From Pontibacter sp. G13 (lineage in GTDB: Bacteria > Bacteroidota > Bacteroidia > J057), in the NCBI RefSeq assembly GCF_031851795.1, contig NZ_CP134696.1, positions 868,001 to 932,000 of the forward strand: 64,000 nt of DNA. Reading direction: 5' to 3'. The notes below the pieces were generated by a model that worked only from the letters and a program-made list of their open reading frames with translations, ran no database searches and was not told the DNA's origin. Both the position numbers and the translations under genes were made by a program. The first letter of the stretch is position 1, and the number at the start of each line of letters is the position of its first letter. Positions 17,008 to 41,508 of this stretch are shown here, piece by piece.

Positions 17008-18237
17008 TCATTGGGCTGATTCTGCAAGCGCTTGCGCGGCGATCCAGCTCCCTGTCCAAGCCGCCTGGAAATTGAAGCCTCCCGTGATCGCGTCAATGTC
17101 CAGCACCTCACCCGCAAAGTGTACATTTGGGAGAATTTTGCTGCCCATTGTCTTGAAATCCACCTCCTTCAAATCCACGCCTCCACAGGTGACAAACTCC
17201 TCTTTGAAGGTGCTTTTGCCATTCACTGGATATTGACCCCGGACCAATTCCTCCACCCAAGCAGAAATCTGCTTGTTGGTGATCTCGGCCCAACGTTGTT
17301 CGGGTTTGATGCCTACATATTCGCCCAAGGACTTCCACAACCGGCTCGGAAGGTCGAATTGGGCGTTGGACAAAATCTGCTTTTTGGGCTGACTGCTTCG
17401 GAGGTGCTGAAAATGGTCCTCCACTTGGCCAAACTTCCAGTCAGGAAGCCAGCACACTTCCAACTGAAACTGATAGTTGCAAGCTGCCAATGCGCGTGCT
17501 CCCCAAGCAGAAAGCTTTAGGACGGCTGGACCGCTCATCCCCCAATGTGTGATCAGCAAGGGCCCTTCATCCTTGAGTTTGGCGGTTTTGATGCGGACTT
17601 GCGCACGCGGAACCGACAACCCCATCAAGCCATCGATGCGACGATCTTTGATATTGAAGGTGAATAGGGAAGGAACAGGCGCTGCGATGGTGTGTCCCAA
17701 TTTTTCCAGCAGGTTCCAGATAGGCTGGGCAGCTCCCGGAGTGAAGACCACATGATCCGCCAGTAGTTCTCCCTTTTTGCCCAAATCGAGCCGCCATTTT
17801 CCCTCGGCACTCTGTGTCATATCCACCAATCGAGTCTGCTTCCGAATAGACACGCCGTACTTGTCCACTGAATTCACGAGGCAATCGATGATGGATTGGG
17901 AATTGTCCGAAGTGGGAAAAACACGGTTGTCCGGTTCGATCTTGAGGGGCACCCCTCGGGATTCAAACCACTCCATGGTATCTCCGGTCATGAATCGGGT
18001 GAACGGCCCAATCAGCGCTCGCTGCCCACGCGGATAATGCTTGCTGAGCTCTTTGGGCACGAAACAGCCGTTGGTGACATTGCATCGACCACCGCCCGAA
18101 ACTTTGACTTTTCCGAGGACCTGCTTGGCCTGTTCCAAGATGATGATTTCTGCCTCTGGAAGCAGCTCCGCGGTATTGGCTGCGCCGAAAAATCCTGCCG
18201 CTCCACCTCCCACAAATACGATAACCGGTTTTCCCAT
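17008..18237 (-). CDS. HI0933-family flavoprotein (YhiN-like oxidoreductase)
   Basis: The 409-residue protein begins with the dinucleotide-binding GGGAAGFFGA and carries the family hallmark GGGRCNVTN near residue 50. Later come a TPGAAQP segment and the C-terminal GEVLDIDAITGGFNFQ with AW..G. This is the HI0933/YhiN flavoprotein family, whose physiological reaction is not settled. The start at 18237 places the GGGAAG motif at the usual N-terminal distance. Upstream of the start lies the long tandem-repeat region. Confidence 0.92.
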   Translation of the reverse strand: MGKPVIVFVGGGAAGFFGAANTAELLPEAEIIILEQAKQVLGKVKVSGGGRCNVTNGCFVPKELSKHYPRGQRALIGPFTRFMTGDTMEWFESRGVPLKIEPDNRVFPTSDNSQSIIDCLVNSVDKYGVSIRKQTRLVDMTQSAEGKWRLDLGKKGELLADHVVFTPGAAQPIWNLLEKLGHTIAAPVPSLFTFNIKDRRIDGLMGLSVPRAQVRIKTAKLKDEGPLLITHWGMSGPAVLKLSAWGARALAACNYQFQLEVCWLPDWKFGQVEDHFQHLRSSQPKKQILSNAQFDLPSRLWKSLGEYVGIKPEQRWAEITNKQISAWVEELVRGQYPVNGKSTFKEEFVTCGGVDLKEVDFKTMGSKILPNVHFAGEVLDIDAITGGFNFQAAWTGSWIAAQALAESAQ

Positions 18238-18290
18238 GCCGCAAAAGTACAACATAAAGTTGTAGGCCTGCACCTACCAAGAATCCAATC

Positions 18291-19180
18291 GGTTCTCAGG
18301 AAGCCATTTTTGCTGGGCATAGTGGGGCTATGGCCGAAAAAATGGCAAACTGAGGTTCTGGACATGAGCCTTTGCAGCCAACAGGGCTCAGAAGCGCGGG
18401 GAGGAAAGAAGCTGTTGGAGGCAGGCCATGTTGAAGCGAAAAGGGTCAGTTGTAGGTTCTCAGGAAGCCATGTTCGCAGGGCGTAATGAGGCTTGAGGCA
18501 AAAATGCAAGCCAGAGGTTGGACATGAGCCTTTGTAGCCAACAGGGCTCAGAAGCGCGGGGAGGAAAGAAGCTGTTGGAGGCAGGCCATGTTGAAGCGAA
18601 AAGGACCAGGCTCAGGTTCTCAGGAAGCCATTTTTGCAAGGGGAAATGAGGCTTGAGGCAAAAATGCAAGCCAGAGGTTGGACATGAGCCTTTGCAGCCA
18701 ACAGGGCTCAGAAGCGCGGGGAGGAAAGAAGCTGTTGGAGGCAGGCCATGTTGAAGCGAAAAGGATCAGGATCAGGTTCTTAGGAAGCCATTTTTGCAAG
18801 GGGAAATGAGGCTTGAGGCAAAAATGCAAGCCAGAGGTTGGACATGAGCCTTTGCAGCCAACAGGACTCAGAAGCGCGGGGAGGAAAGAAGCTGTTGGAG
18901 GCAGGCCATGTTGAAGCGAAAAGGATCAGGATCAGGTTCTCAGGAAGCCATTTTTGCAGGGCATAGTGGGGCTATGGCCGAAAAAATGGCAAACTGAGGG
19001 TTTGCTTTAAAGCCAGCATGGGAACTCTTCTTCATTTAAACACCGAGCGAAAGCCCTTCATGTTGAAGCGAAAAGTGTCAGTTGTAGGTTCTCAGGAAGC
19101 CATGTTCGCAGGGCATAGTCGACTATTTCCGAGAACATGGCAAACTGAGGTTCTGCAAATGGCACTTTGCAGCCAACATG
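18291..19180. repeat. Tandem array of six ~160-bp structured units
   Basis: Units starting with GGTTCTCAGGAAGCCAT lie at 18291, 18455, 18615, 18775, 18935 and 19087 (spacings 164, 160, 160, 160, 152). Units 2-4 are nearly identical; unit 5 keeps the first half but has a different second half; unit 6 is diverged. Each unit has a first hairpin. In unit 1 it is GCCATTTTT (18303-18311) paired with AAAAATGGC (18338-18346), enclosing a CATAG/CTATG stem. In unit 6 it is GCCATGTTC (19099-19107) with GAACATGGC (19133-19141). A second hairpin pairs CCAACAG with CTGTTGG. No spacers or CRISPR signature are present. The region is non-coding; the repeat length is not a multiple of three. Confidence 0.85.
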
Positions 19181-19188
19181 AAACAAAA

Positions 19189-19220
19189 CGCGAACGTACC
19201 GAGCAAATCGGTCGTTCGCG
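19189..19220. other. Long perfect-arm hairpin after the repeat array
   Basis: CGCGAACG pairs with CGTTCGCG, and inside it ACCGA pairs with TCGGT around a GCAAA loop, with one bulged T. No T run follows, so it is not a standard terminator on either strand. It may mark the end of the structured array. Confidence 0.55.
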
Positions 19221-19305: not shown

Positions 19306-20565
19306 TTATCGTTTTATGATTTTTCCGGTCCAAGAATTTTGACCATTGACGACTTGCACTTGGTACATTCCCGCTGGGAAATGCTGAACAGGGACAGTCA
19401 TGGTTTCAGCTCCTGCTTCGAAAGCAGTTTGAAGCAACATCTTGCCTTGCAGGTCATAGATGGTCAAAGCTGCAGCAGCGGAAGCATCCTCACGTTTGAT
19501 CTGGAGGAAGTCCTGTGCAGGGTTTGGATACAGAGAAATGCTGGATACGGAAGCAATCGGATCTACAGATGCAGCAGTAGACTGCACGAAGAACATCCGG
19601 CGAGGGGAGATATAGGTGGAAAGGGCAGGCGAAGTTCCACTCTCATCAAAATATCCTACTTGACCAAAAGTAACATAATCCGTCAAGGAATAAAAGAACA
19701 ATTCAGCTTCGTCGGAATAAGTCATCGCATAGACATTTCCATCAAATCCTGTGGTGTCAATGGTCATGGTATCCACCTCCATATCCGTCACATCGTACTC
19801 CAATACCACTCCACTTCCATTGAGATCGTCGAAGAAAATCTCATCATCATCGTGCGTCAAACTACCGTTGTAGACACCCACGGTATCGGTGTGGGTGACT
19901 TGGAAGGAGGTAGGATTGATCTGCTGAATGATCGTCTGATTGTTGAAGAAATCAGGGCATCCTACCCAGATATTTCCCTGAACCGCGATCACACTGGTAG
20001 GATTCACCTCAGTCTCAATCAAGGTTTGTACGATTTGACCGGAGAGATTAATCACCGCTACAGAGCTATCGGAAGGAAATCCATAAGCAGAGACGAATGC
20101 ATAGTCCCCCAAAATTTGGATAGACTCGCGGCTAGAAGGCAAATCCACGGAATCCAAGTTGTAGATTTCGCTGTAGCCATTGTTCACATCCAACGCGCGG
20201 AAAAACGGTGCGACATTCGCAGAGGCCACCAACAATTGGCTACCGAAGAAAGCAATTCCCCGAGCGGACAATCCCGTCAAGGTATCCACAGGAGCGTAGT
20301 TGTTTTGCGCATCGTAGACGAGGATATCGCCCAATCCATCCACGGCATAGAGCATATTGTTGTGCACCAAGATCTGGTTGCCGAAAGCCTCGATAGAATC
20401 GATATGCTGATAAGTTCCAGCAGGGTACTCGATTTTGCCGATGGTTCCCAAGCCACCAAATGCGCCTTCATTGAGGACATAGAGCGAGCCATTGGGCGTA
20501 TCCTGTGCAAAAGAGAGGTTGATCAGCAGCAAGGCGCCGAGCAGAGTGGTAAAAATTCTGTTCAT
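19306..20565 (-). CDS. Secreted beta-propeller protein with T9SS sorting domain
   Basis: The 419-residue protein has a signal peptide ending at SFAQ (residue ~20), a repeated YVLNEG / VHNNMLYAVDGLGD / VQGNIWVGC pattern typical of a YncE/DUF5074-type beta-propeller, and a C-terminal T9SS type A domain (SLYPNPAQDFLQI, then LTIYDLQGKML, ending WTGKIIKR). It is the third gene of the cobalamin-riboswitch operon, 27 bases after the related lipoprotein gene. The first residues after the signal (SLYVLNEG) match the lipoprotein's VWIVNEG. I infer a surface or released corrinoid-binding propeller paralogous to BtuG, using T9SS instead of a lipid anchor. Direct binding data would be needed to prove the ligand. 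Confidence 0.8.
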   Translation of the reverse strand: MNRIFTTLLGALLLINLSFAQDTPNGSLYVLNEGAFGGLGTIGKIEYPAGTYQHIDSIEAFGNQILVHNNMLYAVDGLGDILVYDAQNNYAPVDTLTGLSARGIAFFGSQLLVASANVAPFFRALDVNNGYSEIYNLDSVDLPSSRESIQILGDYAFVSAYGFPSDSSVAVINLSGQIVQTLIETEVNPTSVIAVQGNIWVGCPDFFNNQTIIQQINPTSFQVTHTDTVGVYNGSLTHDDDEIFFDDLNGSGVVLEYDVTDMEVDTMTIDTTGFDGNVYAMTYSDEAELFFYSLTDYVTFGQVGYFDESGTSPALSTYISPRRMFFVQSTAASVDPIASVSSISLYPNPAQDFLQIKREDASAAAALTIYDLQGKMLLQTAFEAGAETMTVPVQHFPAGMYQVQVVNGQNSWTGKIIKR

Positions 20566-20592: not shown

Positions 20593-21636
20593 TTAGTCAA
20601 CAAATAAAAGGGCACCGGGAATGATGCCCGTATCGAAGGTTTCCAGCATCTGGCCTTCAGTATCGTATCGGATGCCCACACCGGGCTGTACAAAGTCAAT
20701 TGCATCGAGGGCATACACTTCCCCCGATTGTGGATGAACCCCCAAACCGTAGAGATTCAGGCCAGCGCCATTCACCCAAGGAGAATCGGGCAACTCCACG
20801 TCTTCAATCTCCAGGGAATGAATGCCTTCCATCAGGAAATAGAGCTGCCGGCCGTCTGGATCTATGGCGAGTTCAGTCGGATGCTCATCGGCTTCAAAAG
20901 AAAAGGATCTCACAACCTGGCGACTTTCCGGATCGATTTGCACCAGAAAACCGCCCACGTCCTGTATGACATCGCCTTCCCCCAATACCCACAAATAGCC
21001 ATCTGCATCCACCTCCAGGCTATTGGAACCCAGCCCCACTTCCACGCTATCTACTACCTCGTCCATATTGGGATCGATCAGGTAGATATGCTCTCGGTAC
21101 AGATTGGTCACCCAAACCAGGCCGTTCACTTCCGTCAGTTCTTCTGTCCAGCCAGCCAGCGGAATTTCCCCCGTACGGGTACCTTGTTCCAAATCCACAA
21201 TGGAAACCGCCTGCCCATACAAATCTGTCACATAGGCCTTCTGCTCATTTAGCCCAAGGAAAAAGCGTGGTGAAGTAAATCCCGTGAGAGTCTGGATAGA
21301 TTCCCCTGTTTGGGGATCGATCACCTCTACCTTGCCGGAGTTGTTCACCGGGAGGTAGACCTTGCCGCGAAACAAGCTGGCAGACTGGGCGACATCTCCC
21401 AAGTCTCGTTCATTGACCTGATGAAACACTGCTTGCTCGACGACATTGGCACTAGATGAGTACCGCGAAAGCGAAGCATTGGCCCATTGAAAATTGCCTT
21501 CATTGACAATCCAGACGGAAGATGAATCAGCGGGAGGGATCGGTGGTTCGGGAGTAGGAATGGGCGCCTCTCCACAGCTCGAGATGGCTGCTATCAGGAG
21601 AATTGCCCAGATATAGAAGTGTCGGGAAACGTTCAT
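20593..21636 (-). CDS. BtuG-like beta-propeller lipoprotein
   Basis: The 347-residue protein has a lipoprotein signal (hydrophobic run, then Cys in AISSC, residue ~21), a Pro-rich linker, and seven-bladed-propeller-like repeats (VWIVNEGNF, KVYLPVNNSGKVEVID, KAYVTDLYGQAVSIVD, LVWVTNLYREHIYLID). In Bacteroides the surface lipoprotein BtuG, a beta-propeller that binds cobalamin very tightly, is encoded next to BtuB. This gene overlaps the 3' end of the BtuB-like receptor gene by four bases and lies under the same cobalamin riboswitch, so the BtuG role is well supported by context, though not proven by sequence alone. Confidence 0.82.
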   Translation of the reverse strand: MNVSRHFYIWAILLIAAISSCGEAPIPTPEPPIPPADSSSVWIVNEGNFQWANASLSRYSSSANVVEQAVFHQVNERDLGDVAQSASLFRGKVYLPVNNSGKVEVIDPQTGESIQTLTGFTSPRFFLGLNEQKAYVTDLYGQAVSIVDLEQGTRTGEIPLAGWTEELTEVNGLVWVTNLYREHIYLIDPNMDEVVDSVEVGLGSNSLEVDADGYLWVLGEGDVIQDVGGFLVQIDPESRQVVRSFSFEADEHPTELAIDPDGRQLYFLMEGIHSLEIEDVELPDSPWVNGAGLNLYGLGVHPQSGEVYALDAIDFVQPGVGIRYDTEGQMLETFDTGIIPGALLFVD

Positions 21637-23537
21637 GAGGAAGATTTTGGTAGTCCTTCAAAGAAAATCTGAAGCCCCAATTGCCATGATCGGCCGGGCA
21701 TTGGTTGGCCAGCCACCCACTGGTAGGATTGATTCCAGAGATTGTCCAATCGTCCTGTGAGGGTACAGGAAATCTGATTCCATCGAAATGGGTGGCTCAA
21801 GACCAGATTGGCAACATGAGTGGCAGGAAGCTCTGTGTCGGAATTATCGGTCGTGGTGAACCGTTGACCTACGAGGCGATGCCGATATTGAACTGAGCTG
21901 GTCCGCCAAGCAAAGCCGAGCGTAACGGTGCCCTGATGCTCCGGCGTGTAGATCAGTTGCTTGTGCAGGCTTCGGTCAAAAGTAGACTTGGCCTTTTGGT
22001 TGGTGGATTTGGTCCAACTGTAAAGAAGGCCCACCTCAAGGCCGGCATCCCCCATCCGTTGTGTCCAGTGCCCATCGAGTTCCAATCCCCGAGACCAGAC
22101 TTGCTGGATATTTTCAGGAGACCAAAAAGCGCCTTGGGGGAGCCAGATGATCCAATCCTTGACTTGGCTATTGAAGGCAGTAGTTTTGACTGCGAATGAC
22201 CGGGTATCTAGCGAGCGGTCCCAACTCACAAATGCCTCTTGGCTCCATCCCGTTTCAGGCCTGAGATCGGGATTGCCACCGGGATTCCAGTACCAATCGT
22301 TGAAGGTCGGCATACGGAAATTTCGTCCGACATGTCCTCCCGCCCTCCATTCGGAAGCAAGGAGATATTCGAAGCCAAGTGCAGGGGTAAAAGGGGCTGA
22401 TTGGTCGGAAACCCACATTTGCCGGAGACTGGCCAAGGTCTTGAGCCTTCCTGACAGCCAAGCGGCCCGCCAACTTGCCCAAGCGGAGATCCGGGATTGA
22501 TGGTAGGTATTGCCTTGGTACCCGTCAGATGTTCCCGCCAATCGTTGGTAGCGAATAGATCCTTCCAAGGCATGTGCATCAGACAGCTGGACATCTGCAT
22601 TCCATTCACCCAACCATGTACCAGCCCGGCTATCGGAAAATATCGCCGCTACCGAATCCGTGTACCTGAGCGATTCATCTAGATAACTAAGGCGAGTCTG
22701 CATGTCCCATCTCCCTTGCTGGTATTCCCATGCGAGGGAGGATCGGAATTGCAGATCCCACTGAGTAGCGACAGGGTGCAGGTCTCTGGAAGATTCCACC
22801 CCCCAAAGATGGGCGGTCAATCTGTGATGGTTCCCGAGGGAAATCGCCACATCTTGCATGCCCCCCTTTTGGGTAAATCCATTGTGAGTCCGAGGAATTC
22901 GCGCTTCGTTGTCGCTAGGCTGAAAAAGGAAATCATTCTCTGCGGTTCGGAAGAAACCCTTGGCTTGGTATTGAACATGGGCACTTGAAGCGGCCAACTT
23001 CACTCCATATTGCTGAAAACCAAAACTGCCCAGTTCTGCCATACCGCCAGCCCTGAAACTCATCGGTTCCACAAAACGGCTGTCCAGATGAATGCTTCCT
23101 CCAATGGCACCAGAGCCATATCGAGCACTACTTCCACCGTATTGGACCTTGACATCATCTAGCAAAAACACCGGAATCAGCGATAGATCCTGCTGACCAT
23201 TCATGGGGCTTTGCAGGGAGATCCCATTGAGCAGGATATTGGTATGCGAGGCTCCACTTCCCCGAAAAGAGGGTGTGACGAGCCCTGTGGGTCCGTAAAC
23301 CTTGAAATATCCGTGTGTGGTCCCAGCGAGAAGGTCGGCGAGATTGCCAGCCAGCTGGAAAGTCATATCGAGACTGTCGATGGTTTGGACCTGTTTGCCG
23401 ATCGAGGATTGAATCAGACGACGGGCAGAAATCTCCACCGATTCGAGTCGTTTGACGGAATCCATTTGGGCCCATCCGGTAAAGATGCCCCACGACAATA
23501 GCCAGACCAGCGCCAGAAAGCAGCGTGTTCTCCGCAT
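21633..23537 (-). CDS. btuB: BtuB-like TonB-dependent receptor (cobalamin uptake)
   Basis: This is a 634-residue outer-membrane receptor: a signal peptide ending GWAQ, a plug domain (LLAGTTHGYFKVYGPTG, SFRGSGASHTNILLNG, YGGSSARYGSGAIGG), then a beta-barrel ending in an aromatic residue pattern (WQLGLQIFFEGL). The size fits BtuB (about 600 residues) rather than the larger SusC type. The decisive evidence is the cobalamin riboswitch immediately upstream and the BtuG-like lipoprotein that overlaps its stop. It would import corrinoids using TonB energy. No N-terminal carboxypeptidase-like domain is present. Confidence 0.88.
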   Translation of the reverse strand: MRRTRCFLALVWLLSWGIFTGWAQMDSVKRLESVEISARRLIQSSIGKQVQTIDSLDMTFQLAGNLADLLAGTTHGYFKVYGPTGLVTPSFRGSGASHTNILLNGISLQSPMNGQQDLSLIPVFLLDDVKVQYGGSSARYGSGAIGGSIHLDSRFVEPMSFRAGGMAELGSFGFQQYGVKLAASSAHVQYQAKGFFRTAENDFLFQPSDNEARIPRTHNGFTQKGGMQDVAISLGNHHRLTAHLWGVESSRDLHPVATQWDLQFRSSLAWEYQQGRWDMQTRLSYLDESLRYTDSVAAIFSDSRAGTWLGEWNADVQLSDAHALEGSIRYQRLAGTSDGYQGNTYHQSRISAWASWRAAWLSGRLKTLASLRQMWVSDQSAPFTPALGFEYLLASEWRAGGHVGRNFRMPTFNDWYWNPGGNPDLRPETGWSQEAFVSWDRSLDTRSFAVKTTAFNSQVKDWIIWLPQGAFWSPENIQQVWSRGLELDGHWTQRMGDAGLEVGLLYSWTKSTNQKAKSTFDRSLHKQLIYTPEHQGTVTLGFAWRTSSVQYRHRLVGQRFTTTDNSDTELPATHVANLVLSHPFRWNQISCTLTGRLDNLWNQSYQWVAGQPMPGRSWQLGLQIFFEGLPKSSS

Positions 23538-23644: not shown

Positions 23645-23850
23645 CCCGAAAGCAAGGAGTCGAGCACTCTGGCAGGTCTTCTGACTTACTCCGACTTTCC
23701 GCGCCTTCCCGACAGCTCGTGTCAGTGGCAAGCGTTTGCGGAAGTCTTCCCGAGGGAGGAGCTTACAGCAGCGGGAACTGTTCAGGAATTTCACCTGATT
23801 CCCTTTTCATCCATCTATCACGGTAATGAGAGATGGAACCAAAGCTGGGG
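23645..23850 (-). promoter_or_regulatory. Cobalamin (AdoCbl) riboswitch
   Basis: Read on the minus strand the conserved core is complete and in order: the GGTGAAATTCC-like block (near 23794), CCCGCTGCTGTAAGC (near 23770), the B12-box element GCCACTG (23723-23729), GGGAAGG, and AAGTCAGAAGACCTGCC (near 23675). It lies directly upstream of the BtuB-like gene, as expected for repression of corrinoid uptake when B12 is plentiful. The outer boundaries are estimates. Confidence 0.95.
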
Positions 23851-24351
23851 CAAATGTAGTGTACTTATTTAACATTCGGAACTCCATGTTTCATTATTTA
23901 CCCAAATCGAGATCATTTGGGCAGATGGAGCAGCCAGCTTGAATGGGCCGCCGAATTTGGCCAAGATTCCCAAGTTGTGGCTTTGTCAAATCGAATCCAC
24001 GCTGTACCTTAGGTGGACCCTACGGAAAGAAAGTCAGCACTCGGATTTGCTTCATTTTTCGAGATTCTACCCCCACTTTTTCATCCACATTCCTATGCTA
24101 CTTTTCCACAGGGTTTTCTACAGGCGTGATCCTTCCCCTTTCCCTTCGGACATTAAATCCTGATTTTCAGACCATTTAATGATATCACAAACACAAATCC
24201 CATCGAATTCCTACTGAAAATTGGATTTTCCACCCACGGATTACTGATTGTTATACTCGGAGGTCAATTGTTATATTTGAATCCTTTTTTCCCTCAAGTG
24301 GGGAAACCCAGTGACCGGATTGATCCGGGCGCTGCATAGTGGCACGAACAG
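23851..24351. other. Intergenic region upstream of dnaB
   Basis: About 500 bases lie between the riboswitch (transcribed leftward) and dnaB (rightward). I see no convincing gene; short open frames here lack family motifs. The right part carries the probable dnaB promoter, and the promoter of the riboswitch transcript must lie near the left end. Confidence 0.5.
24248..24279 (+). promoter_or_regulatory. Putative dnaB promoter
   Basis: TTG at 24248-24250 and TATATTTG at 24272-24279, spaced 21 bases apart, match the Bacteroidota TTG-N19-21-TAnnTTTG pattern. The dnaB ATG is 72 bases downstream. Confidence 0.5.
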
Positions 24352-32977: not shown

Positions 32978-33849
32978 GAGCGTGTTTTGAATTCGAAAGG
33001 TCTGGATATTAGAAAAATGTGAATCGGCCAACTAACTTTGAAGTTACCACACTAGAAAAGTTAGTATGCAAAAGCAATTTGCGGAATTGACCGATTCACA
33101 ATGGCAAGTTATCGAAAAGTTCTTGGATGTAGAGCGAAAGCGGAAAAACTGTCTCAGAACCATCATAAACGCCATTTTATGGATCACTCGAACCGGAGCC
33201 CAATGGAGGAACCTAGAGAGTAAATATCCACCATGGTCGAGTGTCTACTACTATTTTAGAACTTGGCAAAAGACCGGAGTCTGGGGCGAGATTTTGAAGC
33301 ATTTGGTTCAGTTAGAACGGGAAAGCCAAGGACGAAATGCCGAGCCTTCAGCTGTTGCAATCGATAGCCAAAGTGTGAAAAAGGTGAGCTTCATTTCAAT
33401 ATCCACAGGCATTGACGGCGGAAAACGTGTGAATGGTCGGAAAAGGCATTTGGCGGTGGATGTTCTTGGCTTGCCGGTTGGGATATATGTTGGTCCGGCC
33501 AACAATCACGATTCGGTAGAGGGCGTGGAGTTGCTTTGGCAGATAGAAAATGCTTCCCGGCGTGTAAGGCTGATTTCTGCCGACAAAGCATATCGGGGTG
33601 ATTTTGAGGAACTTGTAACAGGGATATACAATTGGGGGATGGACATTTCCCAAAAGCCTGAGTCCCAATCAGGATTTGTACCCCAGAAGAAAAGGTGGCA
33701 GGTGGAAAGATCCTTTGCCTGGCTGAATTTCTACAGGAGATTGACAAGAGACTATGAACGACTGCCTGAATCTTCAGTCCTTTTCATTCAGCTCGCTTTC
33801 TGCAGTATCATTCTGGCAAGAAGGTCAGGTTGAATTTCCAAACACGCTC
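32978..33849 (+). mobile_element. IS5/IS427-type insertion sequence, 872 bp
   Basis: The ends are inverted repeats beginning GAGCGTGTTT (left, 32978) and, on the other strand, GAGCGTGTTT (right, 33849), with further matches for about 18 bases. Both ends are flanked by TTA (32975-32977 and 33850-33852), a 3-bp target duplication typical of the IS427 group. One full transposase gene lies inside. The element sits in the 3' end of a minus-strand gene and appears intact. Confidence 0.92.
33066..33833 (+). CDS. IS5-family transposase
   Basis: The 255-residue protein is a complete DDE transposase of the IS427-like group: an N-terminal helix-turn-helix region (LTDSQWQVIEKFL, AILWITRTGAQWRNL), first Asp in AVAIDSQSVKK, second Asp in LISADKAYRG, and the closing QVERSFAWLNFYRRL with the catalytic Glu. 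It is in one frame, unlike IS427 members that need frameshifting. It catalyses cut-and-paste movement of its own element. The single intact frame and clean TTA duplications suggest recent arrival. Confidence 0.95.
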   Translation: MQKQFAELTDSQWQVIEKFLDVERKRKNCLRTIINAILWITRTGAQWRNLESKYPPWSSVYYYFRTWQKTGVWGEILKHLVQLERESQGRNAEPSAVAIDSQSVKKVSFISISTGIDGGKRVNGRKRHLAVDVLGLPVGIYVGPANNHDSVEGVELLWQIENASRRVRLISADKAYRGDFEELVTGIYNWGMDISQKPESQSGFVPQKKRWQVERSFAWLNFYRRLTRDYERLPESSVLFIQLAFCSIILARRSG

Positions 33850-41161: not shown

Positions 41162-41508
41162 AGCAACTTTCAAATCCGAGCATGGTCGTTGCACAAAAAA
41201 ACGACAAATCTCGACGCTTGATTGATTGTGATACACGAAGATAGATGTTGGCGCACCAAAAATTGTTGGAACGAAGCGCTTCGAAAAATCGCCGATTTCG
41301 GATTTTTTTCTATTTTTCGTTGTCAAAGAAGCTGTGTTCCATTTGTAGACTCAGCAGCAAACGCTCATTTCCACCGCCTCCAATAGCCATTTATTCGACC
41401 ATACAAGCACTATGATCTATCCCAATGGCGTATTGAAAAGTCAAGAATGGCCGTTTTTGCTTCAACATATTTCCTTTAGACGGCTTCAAAAATAGCAGAT
41501 TCAACCCT
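41162..41508. other. Intergenic region between divergent genes
   Basis: About 350 bases separate the M15-like gene (leftward) and the amidase gene (rightward). It should contain both promoters, but I found no clear TAnnTTTG match. No gene is supported. Confidence 0.45.

What the first reader, a model, noticed from the sequence alone, without database searches (positions are those of the whole stretch)
18291..19180. Tandem ~160-bp units with compensating hairpin stems
Six units with about 160-base spacing fill the gap between two genes. The first hairpin stem is GCCATTTTT/AAAAATGGC in unit 1 and GCCATGTTC/GAACATGGC in unit 6, so both arms changed together. In units 3 and 4 the left arm pairs with a different right-arm sequence (CATTTTTGC with GCAAAAATG). 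A second hairpin (CCAACAG/CTGTTGG) recurs. Unit 5 has replaced its second half. This looks like a structured non-coding element under selection on structure, repeated in tandem: an unusual mobile palindromic element, an RNA cluster, or a recombination substrate.
Basis: seen in the sequence. Interest (0 to 1): 0.72.

Follow-up and report, generated by a model that had tools for sequence, protein, structure and literature searches.

The report
Hairpin transposon array abutting a terminator
The six repeats are one site of a family of about 100 small hairpin-shaped mobile elements in this bacterium; nearly all well-kept copies sit head-on against the stop signal of a neighbouring gene and have multiplied there, and base changes show that the fold of one strand has been preserved.

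Summary
The array is real. Window 18291-19180 holds six copies of a ~120-nt imperfect palindrome. The genome has about 47 loci and ~100 copies, many in tandem with a locus-specific period (140-168 bp). Across 26 copies the fold is strongly supported: 93% of cells paired, 31 of 47 pairs changed on both sides, 156 double-change cells against 42.5 in shuffles. In the window itself support is mixed: unit 6 (and partly 1 and 5) keeps the fold; units 2-4 are degenerate and unit 2 is an unmatched mosaic.

The outer stem (GAAGCTGTTTAAG) equals the terminal inverted repeat of an IS5-family insertion sequence in the same genome. Solitary copies show 3-bp target duplications. So these are IS5-type MITEs.

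Three features are unusual. G.T wobbles exceed A.C mismatches 156:20 on one strand, so folding of that strand (RNA or single-stranded DNA) is selected. In 33 of 39 loci the 3' end abuts the T-tract of a convergent gene's terminator; no reversed case was seen. Arrays start with a 5'-truncated unit and share a locus-specific spacer. Best reading: an IS5-type MITE lineage that inserts or persists at terminators and amplifies by recombination. Why terminators, with fixed polarity, is unexplained.

The parts
18291..18426 (+). Unit 1, 5'-truncated (starts at GGTTCTCAGG), core plus spacer
   Evidence: RNA fold z -2.3 for 18291-18384
18427..18586 (+). Unit 2, degenerate mosaic: left arm of the unit-6 type, right arm of the unit-3/4 type
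   Evidence: z -1.5; R1 46.9 bits
18587..18746 (+). Unit 3, rearranged right arm (CATTTTTGC pairs GCAAAAATG)
   Evidence: z -0.7; R1 55.0 bits
18747..18906 (+). Unit 4, rearranged right arm like unit 3
   Evidence: z -1.6; R1 55.4 bits
18907..19058 (+). Unit 5, canonical inner hairpin, outer 3' arm and spacer replaced
   Evidence: z -3.8; R1 85.5 bits
19059..19180 (+). Unit 6, complete inner element (CATGTTG...CAACATG), lacks the outer P1 3' arm
   Evidence: z -8.8, -61.6 kcal/mol; R1 123.2 bits
19181..19220 (-). Intrinsic terminator of the 19306-20565 (-) gene: hairpin CGCGAACG...CGTTCGCG and its T-tract, which abuts the array
   Evidence: read from the sequence; the automatic rule missed it because of a bulge
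17008..18273 (-). Flanking gene: HI0933-like FAD-binding flavoprotein
19306..20565 (-). Flanking gene, convergent to the element's sense strand: protein with T9SS C-terminal sorting domain
41328..41487 (-). Second copy of the family in the window: solitary, decayed, ends GAAGCC...AGCTTC flanked by TTT on both sides
   Evidence: R1 42.7 bits; sequence

Best explanation
The array is one locus of a family of IS5-type MITEs (small non-autonomous transposons). The complete element is ~165 nt: a rod-like hairpin whose outer stem P1 (GAARCTGTTTAAG...) is the terminal inverted repeat of an IS5-family insertion sequence, and whose inside is a conserved fold with a GGTTC/GGTTC wobble motif. Shown: dispersed copies, inverted repeat shared with a resident IS5-family element, 3-bp duplications at solitary copies, conserved pairing with strand-specific wobble, precise abutment of convergent terminators, locus-specific tandem units. 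Inferred: (a) movement in trans by the IS5-family transposase; (b) folding of the sense strand, as RNA or as single-stranded DNA, matters for the element's spread or persistence; (c) the minimal terminator-side structure [5'-truncated copy - spacer - full element] supplies direct repeats, and unequal recombination between them makes arrays of 1-7 units and keeps units alike within a locus. In the window the array lacks the P1 3' arm and three of its units have decayed.
For: About 47 loci and ~100 copies. Covariation over 26 copies: 31 of 47 pairs changed on both sides, 156 double-change cells vs 42.5 shuffled and 15-29 slid. G.T 156 vs A.C 20 (69 vs 20 without three invariant pairs, p = 2e-7), not explained by a C-to-T bias within arrays. 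Resident 932-bp IS at C1:1066897-1067828 with the same inverted repeat, a 3-bp duplication GCT and a transposase above the NCBIfam IS5 cut-off. Relatives in Bernardetia and Adhaeribacter have the same ends. Eight of 16 solitary copies with exact 3-bp duplications. L068/L078 97% alike over 177 bp, essentially the P1-bounded element. Terminator abutment 33 of 39. Diverged solitary copies in another genus of the family and in one genome of the same class.
Against: Ordinary MITE transposition gives no reason for one fixed orientation at terminators, for the missing 3-bp duplication at array loci, or for the 5'-truncated partial copy at nearly every terminator locus. The near-perfect P1 arms are more than a transposase would need. 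No transposition or recombination was observed.
Confidence: 0.66

Rival explanations
1. Terminator-primed copying. The free end of a terminator T-tract (DNA or transcript) primes copying of an element template with an A-rich 3' end. Copying runs from the 3' end towards the 5' end, may jump once to a second template, and aborts at a random point. This leaves a fixed 3' end at the T-tract, a 5'-truncated first unit and a locus-specific junction filler: a SINE-like second mode of spread beside IS5 transposition.
For: Exact abutment and fixed polarity; truncated 5' ends with variable breakpoints and 3'-half-only copies L070 and L076; near-perfect P1 arms as if one was copied from the other.
Against: The only reverse transcriptase found is a UG17 defence RT with a SLATT partner. 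Each spacer is locus-specific but the same in all units of its locus, so recombination is needed as well.
Confidence: 0.17
2. Domesticated structured RNA: copies at terminators are kept because the sense RNA, or its hairpin at the gene end, does something for the host (for example shielding from convergent transcription, or binding a protein).
For: Strand-specific wobble and covariation; terminator-side copies score about 90-137 bits in R1 while the fully solitary ones in this genome, apart from L078, score 30-87.
Against: The 5'-side gene has no preferred orientation, so no common promoter or host transcript is evident; units in the window array have decayed; only two other genomes among 60 searched have the family.
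Confidence: 0.1
3. REP/BIME-like repeat moved by a Y1 (RAYT) transposase.
For: Two Y1_Tnp genes in the genome; palindromic intergenic repeats in clusters.
Against: No copy within 1.5 kb of either Y1 gene. Solitary copies have 3-bp duplications and IS5-type inverted repeats, which Y1 elements are not known to have.
Confidence: 0.02
4. No selection on structure: template switching in quasi-palindromes corrects one arm to the other, and the array is an unstable duplication.
For: P1 has 45 double-change cells and only 2 G.T and 1 A.C, which fits arm-to-arm copying.
Against: In the core, correction should not favour G.T over A.C, yet 156 vs 20 are seen, and conserved internal loops persist.
Confidence: 0.05

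Closest known systems
BOX elements of Streptococcus pneumoniae (PMC3049150)
   Same: Small interspersed repeats with inverted ends resembling those of a resident IS, tightly folded, with a variable number of tandem modules, over-represented between convergent genes
   Different: In BOX only an inner module (boxB) repeats; here the whole hairpin repeats with a locus-specific spacer, and the end abuts terminator T-tracts in one orientation
BrickBuilt and MITE464/PgRS of Porphyromonas gingivalis (PMC4596501)
   Same: Bacteroidota MITEs with IS5-type ends (GAGACTGTTGCA in MITE464 and ISPg4) and inner tandem repeats
   Different: Their repeats are 23 or 41 nt without such a fold; no covariation or terminator abutment found in the passages read
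Correia/NEMIS and ERIC elements
   Same: Palindromic intergenic MITE-like elements that fold in RNA; RNase III or RNase E effects are described (review PMC10969869)
   Different: Not IS5-type here; RNA effects untested
Group IIC introns
   Same: Insert just behind intrinsic-terminator hairpins (own knowledge; abstracts listed)
   Different: No group II intron RT in the genome and no Rfam intron hit in the loci searched; no ribozyme; polarity relative to the terminator differs

Membership tests
MITE of an IS5-family insertion sequence | Terminal inverted repeat shared with a resident IS | tested here: met
   P1 GAARCTGTTTAAG vs IS ends GAATCTGTTTAAT / CTTAAACAGCTTC
MITE of an IS5-family insertion sequence | The IS encodes an IS5-family transposase | tested here: met
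   NF033580 transpos_IS5_3, 132 bits vs cut-off 110
MITE of an IS5-family insertion sequence | Short target-site duplication at solitary copies | tested here: met
   Exact 3-bp duplications at 8 of 16 solitary copies, read by eye
MITE of an IS5-family insertion sequence | Target-site duplication at terminator-side array copies | tested here: not met
   Three bases left of P1 and right of P1' match at only 1 of about 19 loci read by eye
MITE of an IS5-family insertion sequence | Mobilised in trans by that transposase | not testable with these tools
   Needs a transposition assay
REP/RAYT (Y1) element | Repeats flank a Y1 transposase gene | tested here: not met
   No profile hit in 1.5-kb flanks of the two Y1_Tnp genes
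Retroelement (TPRT/SINE-like) | Reverse transcriptase of a mobile retroelement in the genome | tested here: not met
   Single RVT_1 hit, a UG17 defence RT next to a SLATT gene
Retroelement (TPRT/SINE-like) | Fixed 3' end with variably 5'-truncated copies | tested here: met
Known Rfam RNA family | Match above gathering score | tested here: not met
   Window: only a cobalamin riboswitch and a tRNA; five loci with copies: nothing relevant

The most novel reading that the evidence does not exclude
A bacterial hairpin element with two ways of spreading: ordinary IS5-type transposition bounded by its inverted repeats, and a strand-specific copying reaction that starts at the T-tract of an intrinsic terminator, makes a near-perfect outer stem, and leaves 5'-truncated, tandem, SINE-like insertions.
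Probability: 0.15. Interest if true: 0.87.

Novelty: new variant of a known kind. Interest (0 to 1): 0.52.

Why it matters
MITEs are usually treated as debris whose inside does not matter. Here the inside is a fold kept by compensatory change on one strand and recognisable in another genus, and the copies mark terminators with fixed polarity. If the polarity reflects the insertion reaction, it points to a terminator-linked mode of spread not described for MITEs as far as I know. If it reflects selection, it points to a role for structured repeats at gene ends. Either way the arrays are likely hypervariable loci.

Tried and rejected
Rfam families: no relevant hit. REP/RAYT: no copy near the Y1 genes. 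Group II or retron RT as mover: the only RT is a defence RT. A sense-strand C-to-T mutation bias as cause of the G.T excess: within-array polymorphisms show none. A congener with empty sites: none held; of 13 genomes of the family only one other has copies. Plasmid relatives of the element: no match. Automatic alifold in Python gave an empty structure and was replaced by the fold of one copy plus pair counting.

Full report
What is there. The window is part of a 7.54-Mb chromosome of a Bacteroidota genome; Saprospiraceae and Flavobacteriaceae are among the nearest matches to its flavoprotein gene. Window 18291-19180 holds six copies of a palindromic unit. The array lies between a flavoprotein gene and the terminator of a T9SS-sorted protein gene, both on the minus strand. 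Unit 1 is 5'-truncated. Units 2-4 carry a rearranged right arm. Unit 2 combines the left arm of one type with the right arm of the other. Unit 5 has lost its outer 3' half. Unit 6 is intact except for the outermost stem. Folding agrees: sense RNA z-scores are -2.3, -1.5, -0.7, -1.6, -3.8 and -8.8 for units 1-6.

A genome-wide family. BLAST with unit 1 gave 81 matches in the genome. A covariance model from 26 copies (A1, R1) gave 105 hits, some being the opposite strand of the same palindrome. Merged with the profile hits, there are about 47 loci and ~100 copies, counting fragments. Many are tandem with a constant, locus-specific period: 140, 148, 155, 160, 161, 164, 165, 166 or 168 bp. Units are much more alike within a locus than between loci. 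The window holds a second, solitary and decayed copy at 41328-41487.

Structure. On A1, 93% of cells form standard pairs, 31 of 47 pairs have changes on both sides, and 156 cells are double changes against 42.5 +/- 6.3 in shuffles and 15-29 in slid controls. Related sequences inflate such counts somewhat, but the margin is large. Wobbles are strand-specific: on the strand read as sense, G.T 156 and A.C 20 in 32 copies, and 69 to 20 without three invariant G.T pairs. A C-to-T excess on that strand is not seen within arrays (A/G 47, C/T 32 polymorphic columns). I infer selection for folding of that one strand, as RNA or as single-stranded DNA. G.T is also the better tolerated mismatch in DNA (own knowledge), so the two cannot be told apart here. 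The outer stem P1 behaves differently: 301 of 312 cells are Watson-Crick, 2 G.T, 1 A.C, with 45 double-change cells in 24 hand-read loci. Its G.T rate is lower than in the core (p = 7e-5). P1 thus looks fresh or copied arm to arm, rather than slowly compensated.

What kind of element. P1 reads GAAGCTGTTTAAG or a variant. The genome has a 932-bp IS (C1:1066897-1067828) with ends GAATCTGTTTAAT and CTTAAACAGCTTC, a 3-bp duplication GCT, and a 301-aa transposase above the NCBIfam IS5 cut-off. Related IS5 elements in Bernardetia (GAAGCTGTTTAAG, duplication CAT) and Adhaeribacter (GAAGCTGTTTAGG) share these ends. Another genome of the same family (G006, eight hits) and one of the same class (G044, one hit) carry diverged solitary copies. 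Eight of 16 solitary copies have exact 3-bp flanking duplications, read by eye: L078 TTA, L180 TTA, L183 and L185 TGA, L187, L189 and L240 TAA, and window 41328-41487 TTT; well under one is expected by chance. L068 and L078 are 97% alike over 177 bp, essentially the P1-bounded element plus about 13 bp on its left. The family is therefore best filed as an IS5-type MITE lineage. That this transposase moves it is inferred.

The terminator association. In 33 of 39 loci of the profile set a terminator of the convergent strand lies right behind the element's sense 3' end. Its T-tract is 28-35 nt from the core when P1 is present and 4-6 nt when it is not, so it abuts the element in both cases. Sense-strand terminators in the same stretch: 5. 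Control windows 5' of the loci: 3 of 117 over both strands. The window's own terminator (19181-19220) was missed by the rule because of a bulge, but is plain by eye. ORF calls agree: the 3'-side gene is convergent in 29 of 39 and the 5'-side gene shows no clear preference, 23 to 16. I saw no reversed case. The solitary copies found later with the model are not next to terminators.

Array anatomy. Most terminator-side loci read: 5'-truncated partial copy, spacer of about 8-26 nt, full element(s), A-run, terminator. The spacer is the same in all units of a locus and differs between loci; only L079 and L089 were seen to share one. The partial copy and the full element form direct repeats from which unequal recombination can make arrays of up to seven units. 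This accounts for within-locus likeness and variable copy number. It does not account for the first truncated copy, the fixed orientation or the exact abutment.

Mechanism. My favoured account is MITE transposition by an IS5-family transposase plus in-place amplification by recombination, with the fold maintained because the folded strand matters to the element. The terminator polarity is its weak point. A copying reaction starting at the T-tract would explain the fixed 3' end, the truncated 5' end, the two end types and the near-perfect P1, but the only reverse transcriptase found is a UG17 defence RT with a SLATT partner. I give it 0.17.

Comparison. BOX elements (PMC3049150) and the P. gingivalis MITEs BrickBuilt and MITE464 (PMC4596501) are the nearest known kinds; the latter share IS5-type ends of similar sequence (GAGACTGTTGCA). 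The whole-hairpin repetition, locus-specific spacer, wobble asymmetry and fixed position at terminators do not appear in the passages of those papers that I read. I did not search the literature exhaustively.

Noticed in passing
L079:4770-4936 and at least 41 places in the genome: A second, GC-rich ~167-bp dispersed repeat (TGTGCGGTTGGCTGGTG...CACACCCAAAT), often on the 5' side of the hairpin arrays.
   Followed up: partly
L223:222-2334 (C1:5417789 region): The only reverse transcriptase found is a UG17-type defence RT followed by a SLATT-domain gene, a DRT-type anti-phage system.
   Followed up: partly
window 23654-23858 (-): Cobalamin riboswitch upstream of an outer-membrane receptor-like gene (21633-23537, -).
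   Followed up: no
window 33342-33806 (+): DDE_Tnp_1 transposase segment with a near-identical score at C1:5933242; its ends do not match the P1 inverted repeat.
   Followed up: partly
L229:2968-3022: A ~55-bp hairpin made of little more than the two inverted repeats (GAAGCTGCTTAAT...CTTAAACAGCTTC), perhaps a minimal derivative of the same IS.
   Followed up: no
L210:4000-4395: A diverged three-unit array of the same family at a terminator, found only with the covariance model.
   Followed up: partly
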